This document shows, in pieces, positions 27,637 through 30,709 of a stretch of DNA of 64,000 nucleotides. The notes under the pieces were generated by a model. It had not been told where the DNA came from and ran no database searches. It worked only from the letters and a program-made list of their open reading frames with translations. The stretch is from Hymenobacter aerophilus DSM 13606. GTDB taxonomy: Bacteria > Bacteroidota > Bacteroidia > Cytophagales > Hymenobacteraceae. A program made the translations under genes and the position numbers. Numbering within the stretch: position 1 is the stretch's first letter; every line of letters begins with the position of its first letter. The stretch lies in the NCBI RefSeq assembly GCF_000382225.1, contig NZ_KB907804.1, forward strand, positions 1 through 64,000. The letters are read 5' to 3'.

Positions 27637-27673
27637 AAAACAAAACCCAGCCGAGCGGGCTGGGTTTTGTTTT
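27637..27673 (-). terminator. Intrinsic terminator of the GSCFA gene
   Basis: A 16-bp stem (AAAACAAAACCCAGCC at 27637-27652, complement at 27658-27673) with a 5-nt loop. The A-rich arm becomes a U tract on the minus-strand RNA. The stem overlaps the stop codon of the gene it terminates. Confidence 0.8.
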
Positions 27674-30410
27674 ACTGGCCTTCCGGAGCTTCCGGGTTGG
27701 CTTTTTTAGCGGTTTTGGCAGCCGGCTTCGCTCGGGACTTGGCCGGTGGCTTCGTAGGAGCTGGTGGAGTATCCGCCGCCTCCTCAGGGGCCGTGGCGGC
27801 TGGCTTAGGCTTAGCCGCCGTTTTCTTGGCTGCTGGCTTAGGTTTAGCGGCTGCTTTCGGAGCCGGTTTAGCTTTCACAACCTTCTTAGGAGCTGCCGCC
27901 ACCACTGGTTGCGGGACAGCTGTTTCGGTGAGTGCCTCGGCTGTCTGGGGCTCAGCTACAGACTCAGCAGCAGCGGCCTTCGGTTTGGCAGGCGCCCGCT
28001 TCTTAACCGGGACCTTAACCGGCTTCGGAGTTGGCTCGGGTTGGGTCGCCGCCGAAGCAGACGTTGCCGCCGCTGTTGCTGACTCCGCCACAGCCGCGGG
28101 CTCAACCGTCGGCGCTTTGGGTTTGGCGGCCTGCTTGCGGCGGGCTGGCTTCGCGGGAGCAGTTTCCGTAGCGGCTGGCTCTATAGCAGTTGGTCCGTCC
28201 GTGATTGGCGTATCCGGGCTGATTTCAGCCGCAGCCAAAGCAGGCGCGGCAACCGGTTCAGGGGCGGTCGGTTTTGGCGTTTTTGCACGCGCGGGCCGCT
28301 TTTTGGCAGTGGGCTTAGCTGCACTGGCCGCATTGTCGTCGGTAGCGGCAGGCGCGCTTGCTTCCGTTGCCGCTGGTGTTGCGTCAGTGGCCGGTGCTGG
28401 GGCGGGCGTTACTGATTCAACCGGGGCAAAAGTAGGCGTAACGGCTTCCGCTATCGATTCAGTTGCCGCGTCTACTGAGGGCGAAGCTTCAGGCTCAGTA
28501 GGAGCCGCGCTTTCCGCATCTACCGCGTACAGCGGCTGGCGGCCGGGCCGGCCACCGTAGCGCGGGGCCTGCTCGCGCTTGTTGCCGCGCCGGTTATTGC
28601 GGCTCCGACGGGTGGCCGGCGCGGGCTCGTCGGTATCAGGGGTAGCCTGTCCGGCTTCCGTATCGTCGGTGTCTTCAGTAGCCGCAACGGCTGCTTCGCT
28701 GGTTTCGGGCCGTGGGCGGGGCTGGCGCAATTCCGCTTCCGTTACATACACCACATCCGAGGCGGGCTCGTCGCTGGCCTCAGTGTCTTCAGCTCCTTCG
28801 GCTGGGGCGCTGGTGGTTGGTACGGGCTCATCGGGCAGGGGGGCGGGCGCGGTGGCTACGGCACTGTCTTCGGGCTGACCTTCCATTGCGGCCTGCTCAG
28901 CGGCCAGGCGGGCGTGCTTGCGCTTGGTGCGCTTGGCCCCGCCCCGCGAACGGCGCTTTTTGCGGCGGGCTGCTTCCTCTACGGTTTCGTCCGGGTTGGC
29001 TTCTTCGCTGTCGTCCGCCTCGTCTTCGTCAGTTTCGGCTTCGTCCGTCAGGTCAGTAGCGGTAGGGGAGTAGGCGTGGTCGTAGGCCGAATCGGCCGAT
29101 ACGGTGGTTTCGTCAGTATCAGTGTCCGCTTCTTCGGGCTCCGTTTCTTCGGCATCTTCTACCAGCAAACCAGCACCGGCCTGCAGCAGACTGGCCTGGG
29201 ATGTAAGCCGGGTTTTGGCAAATACCGCCGCTCGGCTAACCTCCTTTTTGCCGTTTTCCGGCTTACCGGCTTCTTTCTTCGGCACTGATTCCGTAACGGC
29301 GGCCACTACCGGCGCTACGGCTACGGGTTGGGCTTCATCAATGGCGGCCTGATCATCAAACGAGCCGATGTCGATACGCTCTTCGCCATCGTCGTAATCC
29401 TCTTCCTCCACGGGCGCGGCCGATTTGGGCTCGGGCAGGTTGGCCAGCTCGCGCTCCACATGCAGCAGCTCCATGCGCACATCGGCCGTGCCGCTGAGCT
29501 TGCGCAGGCGTTCCAGGGTGCTTTCCAGGAAGGCGCGGTGCTCGGGCGCGGCCGGATGCAGCGGGCGGTGGCCCAGGTTCTGGCGGATGCCTTCCCACTC
29601 CTTCTTGAAGCGGCCAAAAGCAGCATCGAAATAGGTACGCGTAAACTTCTCCCACACGTAGTTCTCGGCCGATTCCGACAGATGCAGCATGTCGGTGGCA
29701 TAGAAGCGGTAGTCGCGCAAATCGTCCAGCAGCAGCTCGTAGGCCGGGAAGTACGTTACGTCGGGCAGCAGCTCACTCAGGTAGTGGCAGGCCACGCGCA
29801 GCATCGCCTTGCTGGCCGAGTTCAGCACCAGCGTATCCTTGAGGTGCCGCACGGGGCTTACCGTGAGCACAAACCGCAGCTTGGGGTTGATGCGGCGCAG
29901 GTAGGCGTGGGTTTCGGCCACGGCTGCTATAATATCGTCAGCCGTCAGTAGTTCCTTATCGAACTGATCGGCCGGCACCTTGTGGCAGTTGCTGATCAGC
30001 TCGCCGGTTTCGTGCAGGCGGTAGGCGTAGGCCGAGCCCAGCGTGAGCACCACCACATCGGCCGTAGCCAGAAACACGCCCACCTCGCGGGTTAGCCGGT
30101 TGATGTGCTGCAACAGGTCCACCGGCGAGTCGGCCCCAATGCCGGCGTGCAGATCGTAGCTCTGCCAGCGGCCCCGGGCCTCCACTAAGTGCTGCTGCCA
30201 GTCCACATCCTCGCCGGCCGCCGCGCGCAGCAGCTTGCAGGCCGAGATGGGATTGAACACGGTGCCGAACGGATTGACCAGCGTCGCGACCTTGAACTCG
30301 GTCAGGCGCGCGCCGATGGAATCCGAAAAGCAGGACCCCAGCGTGAGTACCCGCGCCGAGGGCGGCAGCTGCTGGGAGAGGGGCGTAAGCGGAATTTCGG
30401 TACGAAACAT
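27672..30410 (-). CDS. GSCFA-family protein with a 500-residue low-complexity, histone-like tail
   Basis: A 912-residue protein. Residues 1-330 are a GSCFA domain, an SGNH-hydrolase-like fold found in Bacteroidota, with LTLGSCFSDSIG at about 24-35 and ADVVVLTLGSAYAYRL. The usual family member stops near this length. Then comes an acidic linker (EEEDYDDGEERIDIGSFDDQ), a long Glu/Asp/Thr/Ala-rich region, a basic block with RRKKRRSRGGAKRTKRKHAR, and a C-terminus made of Pro/Ala/Lys repeats (KAKPAPKAAAKPKPAAKKTA) like histone H1. The tail is strongly biased but uninterrupted by stops. ATG at 30410 (MFRTEIPLTP) is the normal family start. The role is unknown; the tail could bind nucleic acid or polyanions. 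Confidence 0.8.
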   Translation of the reverse strand: MFRTEIPLTPLSQQLPPSARVLTLGSCFSDSIGARLTEFKVATLVNPFGTVFNPISACKLLRAAAGEDVDWQQHLVEARGRWQSYDLHAGIGADSPVDLLQHINRLTREVGVFLATADVVVLTLGSAYAYRLHETGELISNCHKVPADQFDKELLTADDIIAAVAETHAYLRRINPKLRFVLTVSPVRHLKDTLVLNSASKAMLRVACHYLSELLPDVTYFPAYELLLDDLRDYRFYATDMLHLSESAENYVWEKFTRTYFDAAFGRFKKEWEGIRQNLGHRPLHPAAPEHRAFLESTLERLRKLSGTADVRMELLHVERELANLPEPKSAAPVEEEDYDDGEERIDIGSFDDQAAIDEAQPVAVAPVVAAVTESVPKKEAGKPENGKKEVSRAAVFAKTRLTSQASLLQAGAGLLVEDAEETEPEEADTDTDETTVSADSAYDHAYSPTATDLTDEAETDEDEADDSEEANPDETVEEAARRKKRRSRGGAKRTKRKHARLAAEQAAMEGQPEDSAVATAPAPLPDEPVPTTSAPAEGAEDTEASDEPASDVVYVTEAELRQPRPRPETSEAAVAATEDTDDTEAGQATPDTDEPAPATRRSRNNRRGNKREQAPRYGGRPGRQPLYAVDAESAAPTEPEASPSVDAATESIAEAVTPTFAPVESVTPAPAPATDATPAATEASAPAATDDNAASAAKPTAKKRPARAKTPKPTAPEPVAAPALAAAEISPDTPITDGPTAIEPAATETAPAKPARRKQAAKPKAPTVEPAAVAESATAAATSASAATQPEPTPKPVKVPVKKRAPAKPKAAAAESVAEPQTAEALTETAVPQPVVAAAPKKVVKAKPAPKAAAKPKPAAKKTAAKPKPAATAPEEAADTPPAPTKPPAKSRAKPAAKTAKKANPEAPEGQ

Positions 30411-30571: not shown

Positions 30572-30605
30572 AAAAGGTAGCCGACTCGGCAGTTATACGA
30601 ACAAA
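30572..30605 (-). promoter_or_regulatory. Candidate promoter for the GSCFA gene
   Basis: On the minus strand TTTG (30602-30605), a 22-nt spacer and TACCTTTT (30572-30579). The predicted leader is about 155 nt, long and GC-rich. Confidence 0.4.
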
Positions 30606-30647
30606 GGTCGTAATAAGTGCTGCAGTATACGGCGCCGCCGCCAAACA

Positions 30648-30679
30648 AAACGCCCGGCTGCCAAAGCAACCGGGCGTTT
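30648..30679 (-). terminator. Terminator of rpsF-rpsR-rplI
   Basis: A 10-bp perfect stem (AAACGCCCGG at 30648-30657, complement at 30670-30679) with a 12-nt loop. On the minus strand the 3' arm runs into TTTTGTTTGG, about 30 bp past the rplI stop. Confidence 0.8.
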
Positions 30680-30709
30680 CGTGGGCCTCAAGGGTGTTTC
30701 AAGGGCAGC

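What the first reader, a model, noticed from the sequence alone, without database searches (positions are those of the whole stretch)
27672..30410. GSCFA protein extended by a 500-residue acidic-then-basic tail
GSCFA proteins are normally about 330 residues. Here a further 580 residues of strong compositional bias follow in one frame: an acidic Glu/Asp region, an Arg/Lys block, then Pro/Ala/Lys repeats like histone H1. The charge segregation suggests self-association or binding to nucleic acid or acidic glycan. The promoter leader is also unusually long.
Basis: partly seen in the sequence, partly recalled or inferred. Interest (0 to 1): 0.6.

Follow-up and report, generated by a model that had tools for sequence, protein, structure and literature searches.

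The report
Enzyme with long charged disordered tail
In Hymenobacter and its nearest relatives, a small enzyme of unknown function carries an extra floppy tail of several hundred charged amino acids that its cousins lack; two short stretches of that tail have been kept almost unchanged, which suggests it anchors the enzyme to something in the cell.

Summary
Window 27672-30410 (-) is one intact gene of 912 aa: a GSCFA domain of ordinary length (~330 aa), then a ~580-aa low-complexity tail. It is not a frameshift or assembly fusion. Of 130 loci extracted from the tailed clade (the window's genus plus two sister genera), 124 read the tail in one frame, 5 carry it broken by a frame change and 1 is cut by a contig end. 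All 62 sampled genomes of the other three genera of the family, and all 104 matching genomes of other families of the order, have short open frames. On the domain tree the tailed and frame-broken rows form one clade. Tail dN/dS is about 0.2. AlphaFold2 gives a confident SGNH-type fold and low confidence through nearly all the tail. Two tail motifs are nearly invariant, DxEERIDIG and KKKRRSRGGAKRTxRKxARLAA; the rest drifts. Charge segregation exceeds shuffles in all 124 tails. Best explanation: a cytoplasmic hydrolase tethered by a disordered, charge-patterned tail that binds a polyanion. The enzyme fold and the tail's reality are shown by computation; the tethering role is inferred. Unexplained: third-position GC in the tail is far below expectation. 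New variant of a known kind.

The parts
27672..30410 (-). GSCFA gene with long tail, 912 aa, ATG start
   Evidence: start MFRTE conserved in the alignment of 124
29643..30353 (-). GSCFA Pfam domain (aa 20-256); Ser26 (GSCF) and Asp240-x-x-His243 invariant in 56 sequences
29397..30410 (-). confidently folded part (aa 1 to about 338), SGNH-hydrolase fold
27675..29426 (-). clade-specific low-complexity tail (aa 329-912), predicted disordered
29364..29390 (-). motif 1, DxEERIDIG (aa 341-349); eight columns 80-98% identical in 124 proteins
28971..29159 (-). acidic Glu/Asp-rich stretch (aa 418-480)
28896..28967 (-). motif 2, polybasic KKKRRSRGGAKRTxRKxARLAA (aa 482-505), mean identity 82% against 25% for the rest of the tail
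28524..28610 (-). second basic block ending in LYA (aa 601-629); [LF][YF]A occurs in 83 of 124 tails
27687..27998 (-). Lys/Pro/Ala-rich C-terminal part (aa 805-908) with three KPAA units
30645..30682 (-). terminator-like hairpin between rplI and the GSCFA gene
   Evidence: -34.4 kcal/mol for the 54 nt folded, z -4.5
30596..30618 (-). 23-nt block upstream of the gene, identical in 6 of 9 close relatives aligned; possible promoter, not tested
27637..27673 (-). terminator-like hairpin at and just after the stop codon
   Evidence: -24.8 kcal/mol for the 46 nt folded, z -6.1

Best explanation
The gene encodes one protein, most likely cytoplasmic: an SGNH-type hydrolase of the GSCFA family (substrate unknown) with a ~580-residue disordered C-terminal tail that arose once, in the common ancestor of the window's genus and two sister genera, and has been kept since. 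Shown by computation: intact frame, tail confined to one clade, purifying selection on the tail, two nearly invariant short motifs, charge segregation beyond composition, low AlphaFold2 confidence through nearly all the tail. Inferred: the tail is a flexible, multivalent tether. Motif 2 and the basic C-terminal end would bind a polyanion (RNA or DNA first, then polyphosphate or the inner membrane), while the acidic blocks would compete and so tune that binding, so that the enzyme is held or concentrated at one place in the cell. Charged motifs in the disordered region of Bacteroides Rho have been shown to act this way with RNA (PMC13269538, abstract and section 10).
For: 130 of 130 clade loci fit the tail: 124 read it in one frame (proteins of at least 604 aa), 5 have it continuing in another frame, 1 is cut by a contig end. 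Tailed plus frame-broken rows are one clade of 129 in a 206-row domain tree, SH-aLRT 97. Tail dN/dS 0.09-0.37 in 39 pairs, 0.17-0.37 in the 18 with dS below 1. Mean identity 85% in motif 1 and 82% in motif 2 against 25% in the rest of the tail. Charge segregation above 3 s.d. in 124 of 124 tails; a run of five or more Lys/Arg in 124 of 124 tails against 2.5 in shuffles. AlphaFold2: about 330 residues well folded, 473 residues under pLDDT 50. Ser26, Asp240 and His243 invariant in 56 sequences. SGNH fold.
Against: No binding partner was identified. The tail has no sequence relative elsewhere in the own genome at E <= 1 and no Pfam match, and nothing near an NCBIfam cut-off. The helicase look-alike of motif 2 is not significant (E = 0.8), and no helicase hit appeared at E <= 1 in 8 other genomes; the one further place there (G037, E 0.79) lies antisense to a repetitive frame. 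In one of the 8, the tailed g2 genome G120, the motif 2 profile found nothing: both g2 tails have polybasic runs without RGG. Net charge of the window tail is -28. The AlphaFold2 alignment had tail sequence in only 13 of 56 rows, so low confidence there partly reflects thin data. Other proteins of this genome, such as Rho, also have long low-complexity regions, so a long tail alone is not special.
Confidence: 0.5

Rival explanations
1. Stability or solubility aid: the tail acts as an entropic bristle or stabiliser of the enzyme, without a specific partner.
For: Most of the tail is poorly conserved (25% mean identity) and its length varies from 276 to 666 residues, while composition is kept. 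Disordered N-termini raise the thermostability of some other SGNH hydrolases (PMC12720421, abstract read).
Against: Does not predict two nearly invariant motifs, nor the recurring acid-then-base order. The 62 sampled genomes of three sister genera do without a tail.
Confidence: 0.15
2. Protein-partner scaffold: motif 1 and motif 2 are docking peptides for specific proteins and the rest is spacer.
For: The motifs are as conserved as the folded domain (85% and 82% against 81%).
Against: Motif 2 is so basic that a polyanion partner is the simpler reading. No partner was found; neighbouring ribosomal genes are also neighbours in untailed species (31 of 67 named loci).
Confidence: 0.17
3. Histone-H1-like granule or nucleoid tether, as in AlgP and PhaF of Pseudomonas, positioning polyphosphate or PHA granules. 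This overlaps with the best explanation but names DNA and granules as partners.
For: KPAA units are enriched: 136 in 77 of 124 tails against 24 in shuffles, 3 in the window against 0.4. AlgP's KPAA domain is needed for granule spacing (PMC9239181, passages read).
Against: At most 7 KPAA units in one tail and 47 of 124 tails have none, against 25 perfect units in AlgP's repeat region; no tandem array in the window's DNA; the tail is net negative. No link of GSCFA proteins to granules was found.
Confidence: 0.13
4. Near-neutral expansion: a lost stop codon and slippage built a tail that is merely tolerated.
For: Fast evolution and length variation; five frame breaks in the genus, which need five changes on the tree, four of them forced by well-supported branches; unusual codon usage.
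Against: 124 of 130 loci keep one open frame; dN/dS about 0.2; two nearly invariant motifs. The frame breaks may be assembly errors (not checked).
Confidence: 0.05

Closest known systems
GSCFA family PF08885 (SGNH superfamily, clan CL0264)
   Same: Domain, GSCF motif, Ser/Asp/His positions; one clear match in nearly every genome of the genus and family searched
   Different: In the order sample, matches outside the genus have open frames of 243-419 aa; here about 580 residues are added
Disordered region of Bacteroides thetaiotaomicron Rho (PMC13269538: abstract and section 10 read; commentary PMC10284900: whole text read)
   Same: Short conserved basic and acidic motifs inside an otherwise variable disordered region of a Bacteroidota protein
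   Different: That region is an internal insertion in an RNA-binding protein, tested by experiment; this is a C-terminal tail on a hydrolase, untested
AlgP / PhaF histone-H1-like tails (PMC9239181, passages read)
   Same: Lys/Ala/Pro-rich C-terminal part with KPAA units
   Different: Long KPAA arrays and strong positive charge there; here a few scattered units and a net negative tail
SGNH polyesterases with disordered N-termini (PMC12720421, abstract read)
   Same: SGNH hydrolase with an appended disordered region
   Different: N-terminal appendage, different subfamily; the abstract mentions no conserved charged motifs

Membership tests
GSCFA (PF08885) | Match to the family profile above the curated cut-off | tested here: met
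   276.3 bits against cut-off 25, profile positions 1-237 of 237
GSCFA (PF08885) | Conserved GSCF(A) motif near the N-terminus (that the family is named for it is recalled) | tested here: met
   G25 S26 C27 F28 invariant in 56 sequences
SGNH hydrolase superfamily | Catalytic Ser in block I and Asp-x-x-His in block V | tested here: met
   S26, D240 and H243 invariant; block definitions from passages of PMC9487903. Oxyanion-hole Gly and Asn of blocks II and III were not assigned
SGNH hydrolase superfamily | SGNH fold | tested here: met
   Foldseek best E 2.6e-5, EstL5 esterase; VIA Z up to 14.2, 194 residues, 3.5 A; both on a predicted model
SGNH hydrolase superfamily | Esterase or acyltransferase activity | not testable with these tools
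   The 2022 review lists GSCFA among families without a member of known function
AlgP/PhaF H1-like tail | Tandem KPAA-type repeats | tested here: inconclusive
   KPAA units enriched (136 against 24 in shuffles; 3 in the window), but no tandem array in the tail DNA beyond 2-copy units of 9-10 bases
AlgP/PhaF H1-like tail | Strong net positive charge | tested here: not met
   Net charge of the window tail -28; its last 108 residues +12
Rho-type condensation-driving disordered region | Short conserved charged motifs within a variable disordered region | tested here: met
   Two motifs at 82-85% identity against 25%; low pLDDT
Rho-type condensation-driving disordered region | RNA-dependent condensation | not testable with these tools
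   Needs purified protein or imaging

The most novel reading that the evidence does not exclude
The tail makes a metabolic hydrolase an RNA- or polyphosphate-dependent condensate client: basic motif 2 drives coacervation and the acidic blocks inhibit it, so that the enzyme is gathered or hidden according to the state of the cell. This would be a disordered regulatory device like that of Bacteroides Rho, gained independently on an enzyme by one bacterial clade.
Probability: 0.18. Interest if true: 0.65.

Novelty: new variant of a known kind. Interest (0 to 1): 0.4.

Why it matters
GSCFA is one of five SGNH families that the 2022 review lists without a known function. A clade whose examined members carry a long tail, beside sister genera that lack it, is a natural experiment on what a disordered region adds to an enzyme: the same domain with and without tail can be swapped. 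The two nearly invariant motifs give definite targets for mutation.

Tried and rejected
Frameshift or assembly fusion of two genes: rejected. The tail as a copy from another protein: no tail relative elsewhere in the own genome at E <= 1. Whether a free-standing tail gene lies next to untailed GSCFA genes was not searched. AT-hook reading: RGRP cores occur in 24 of 124 tails against 1.6 in shuffles, but not in the window, and Pfam gave no AT-hook match in the seven proteins scanned; dropped as a general explanation. Solved structures by sequence: 7 matches at E <= 1, which I read as compositional, the best NOB1 nuclease at E 0.0016 over profile positions 417-500. Plasmid records: 23 with a match, none covering 80% of the query, best 36%. 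Structured leader RNA: two Rfam matches at E 0.014 and 0.021, both below their gathering scores (25.1 against 40 and 17.4 against 140 bits), taken as chance; the first lies on the terminator-like hairpin. Link to murF-alr: overlapping in a Bacteroides record and adjacent in Tannerella and Porphyromonas (passages of PMC13298647), but no match in the 141 and 79 loci examined here; in the four Hymenobacteraceae genomes searched it lies on another contig or over 1 Mb away. Promoter: the sigma-70-type scan found one site, on the other strand and not upstream of the gene; Bacteroidota-type boxes (recalled, from no call) were looked for by eye without a convincing conserved -7 box. Literature: searches; among the papers listed none had a title about a GSCFA protein with a tail, and one search (Hymenobacter, C-terminal extension, disordered) returned 0 papers. 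Searches listed only part of their hits, and the library lacks most subscription journals.

The draft also denied KPAA repeats; one search shows KPAA units to be enriched, so I raised the H1-like rival from 0.10 to 0.13 and lowered the stability rival from 0.18 to 0.15.

Rows left out of counts: the tree dropped one locus cut by a contig end (L192), one short named locus (L240) and the 12 tailed named loci as duplicates of the genome set; a few untailed duplicates remained. Alignment statistics used the 124 proteins of at least 550 aa; L184, whose frame runs on into the next gene, was clipped (alignment), but not in the regular-expression and residue counts, which repeats with clipping. L159 is cut by a contig end and counted as long. 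Codon statistics used 123 (L184 left out). dN/dS pairs are the first 40 non-overlapping pairs printed, one without a ratio because dS was saturated.

Full report
What is there. Window 27672-30410 on the minus strand is one open frame of 912 aa from an ATG. Pfam finds GSCFA at aa 20-256 with 276.3 bits and nothing else at E <= 1; NCBIfam gives one chance-like match far below its cut-off. Upstream on the same strand lie rplI (L9) and rpsR (S18), downstream priA; these names are mine, from the sequences (recalled), and the proteins served as queries. A terminator-like hairpin lies between rplI and the gene and another at its stop codon, so it is probably transcribed alone. The rplI-to-ATG gap of 299 nt lies between the 75th and 95th percentiles (258.5 and 331) of 128 loci of the tailed clade, median 207; the leader is not remarkable.

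Is the tail real? All 120 genomes of the genus that were searched have the domain; 114 have open frames of at least 614 aa and 6 have 306-525 aa. In a family sample of 110 genomes (38 of the genus, 72 others), open frames are 660-819 aa in the 10 genomes of genera g2 and g5 and 326-397 aa in the 62 genomes of g3, g4 and g6 (counted from its listing). In an order sample of 138 genomes, 24 had no match; the 104 matching genomes outside the genus have best-match open frames of 243-419 aa, and one of them has a second, sub-threshold match in a frame of 521 aa.

I extracted 141 loci: 120 of the genus, 10 of g2/g5, 11 untailed. Of the 130 of the tailed clade, 124 have proteins of at least 604 aa, 5 are shorter and 1 is cut by a contig end. 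In each of the 5 shorter ones the remainder of the tail lies directly downstream in another frame (in one of them with a second change near the end), so the tail was present and its frame is broken, really or by assembly error. On a quick maximum-likelihood tree of 206 GSCFA domains the 124 tailed and 5 frame-broken rows form one clade (129 rows, SH-aLRT 97), and the 77 untailed rows need a single change. Counting the frame-broken rows as losses, the tail label needs 6 changes, which fits one gain and five breaks. The tool flags many long branches among the distant untailed rows.

Is the tail selected? The 124 proteins were chosen as long open frames, so the absence of in-frame stops is no evidence in itself; that 124 of 130 loci keep such a frame is. 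In the 40 non-overlapping pairs printed, tail dN/dS is 0.09-0.37 in the 39 with a ratio and 0.17-0.37 in the 18 with dS below 1; the domain gives 0.01-0.13. The tail evolves faster than the domain but under constraint. Misalignment in such sequence is a caveat.

Anatomy of the tail. In an alignment of 124 proteins, 42 of 584 tail columns are at least 70% identical. Eight lie in motif 1 (DxEERIDIG, aa 341-349) and twenty in motif 2 (KKKRRSRGGAKRTxRKxARLAA, aa 483-504). Mean identity is 81% in the domain, 85% in motif 1, 82% in motif 2 and 25% in the rest. Solirubrum has a related motif, KRRKRKRGGRKHKKKN, and the two g2 tails have polybasic runs without RGG. Every tail (124 of 124) has a run of at least five Lys/Arg, against 2.5 tails in shuffles, and every tail segregates charge more than 3 s.d. 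beyond its shuffles. On average the tail is acidic just after the domain and basic at its end. KPAA units are enriched (136 in 77 of 124 tails against 24 in shuffles; 3 in the window). Cys and Trp are nearly absent (8 and 35 in 57,610 residues).

Structure. AlphaFold2 on 56 aligned sequences gives pLDDT mostly above 90 up to about residue 330 and near or below 50 after residue 350, with two short helices in the tail, one at the end of motif 2. Only 13 of the 56 rows cover the tail, so this is consistent with disorder, not proof. The folded part resembles SGNH esterases: Foldseek best E 2.6e-5 with EstL5; VIA-align Z 14.2 with the peptidoglycan O-acetylesterase Ape1, with many other SGNH enzymes close behind (Z 12.0 at rank 50). 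Ser26, Asp240 and His243 are invariant. The review of 2022 knows no function for the family (PMC9487903, passages).

How it most likely works. The protein begins directly with the folded domain and has no hydrophobic leader by eye, so I take it to be cytoplasmic. A disordered tail with nearly invariant basic and acidic motifs on a cytoplasmic enzyme most simply acts as a tether whose basic elements bind a polyanion. In Bacteroides Rho, two basic motifs in a disordered region were shown to drive condensation with RNA, and an acidic motif to regulate it (PMC13269538, abstract and section 10). That is a working model, not evidence for this protein. A search of the own genome with a motif 2 profile returned the gene itself and, at a non-significant E of 0.8, the C-terminal tail of a DEAD-box RNA helicase (KRRRKRGGRNRNNRG; helicase named by me from its sequence). 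No helicase appeared at E <= 1 in 8 other genomes. The Rho of this genome has its own Ala/Pro/Lys/Glu-rich and Arg/Asp/Gly-rich region, so long low-complexity regions are not confined to GSCFA here.

An unexplained property. Third-position GC in the tail is 0.60 in the window, against 0.86 expected from the domain's own preferences for the same amino acids. The tail is below expectation in 123 of 123 species, by 0.16 on average. Tail and domain of the window have the same total GC (0.642 and 0.641). Two control regions of the same genome, in Rho and in the helicase, with borders set by eye, fall only slightly below expectation (0.81 against 0.87, and 0.86 against 0.93). Relaxed codon choice, fast turnover or avoidance of very GC-rich DNA are possible causes; none was tested.

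Verdict. This is a known enzyme family with a clade-wide, selected disordered extension for which I found no description in the searches named under Tried and rejected: a new variant of a known kind, of moderate interest.

Noticed in passing
window 27675-29426 (-): Third-position GC of the tail is far below what the same gene's domain predicts (0.60 against 0.86 in the window; lower than expected in 123 of 123 tailed species); disordered regions of Rho and an RNA helicase of the same genome fall only 0.06-0.07 below.
   Followed up: partly
L290:5938-9461: In a Bacteroides finegoldii plasmid record the GSCFA gene overlaps the start of murF-alr (fused ligase and alanine racemase) by 25 nt, which hints at a link of the family to cell-wall precursor synthesis; no murF-alr match lies in the loci examined here.
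   Followed up: partly
L181, L145, L091, L093, L163: Five genomes of the genus have the tail broken by a frame change, each a separate tip of the tree (two of them in one small group of four rows); real loss or assembly error not resolved.
   Followed up: partly
L184:4693-9231: In one genome (G083) the tail's frame seems to change near its end and runs on into the next gene, whose product looks like a YyaL/DUF255 protein (name recalled), giving an open frame of 1512 aa.
   Followed up: no
window 30596-30618 (-): A 23-nt block (ACTTATTACGACCTTTGTTCGTA) shortly after the rplI terminator-like hairpin is identical in 6 of 9 close relatives aligned, recognisable in 2 more and absent from 1; possible promoter or operator.
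   Followed up: no
named loci L214-L280: The neighbourhood of rplI and GSCFA is older than the tail: 31 of 67 untailed named loci have rplI within 1,500 nt upstream on the same strand.
   Followed up: partly
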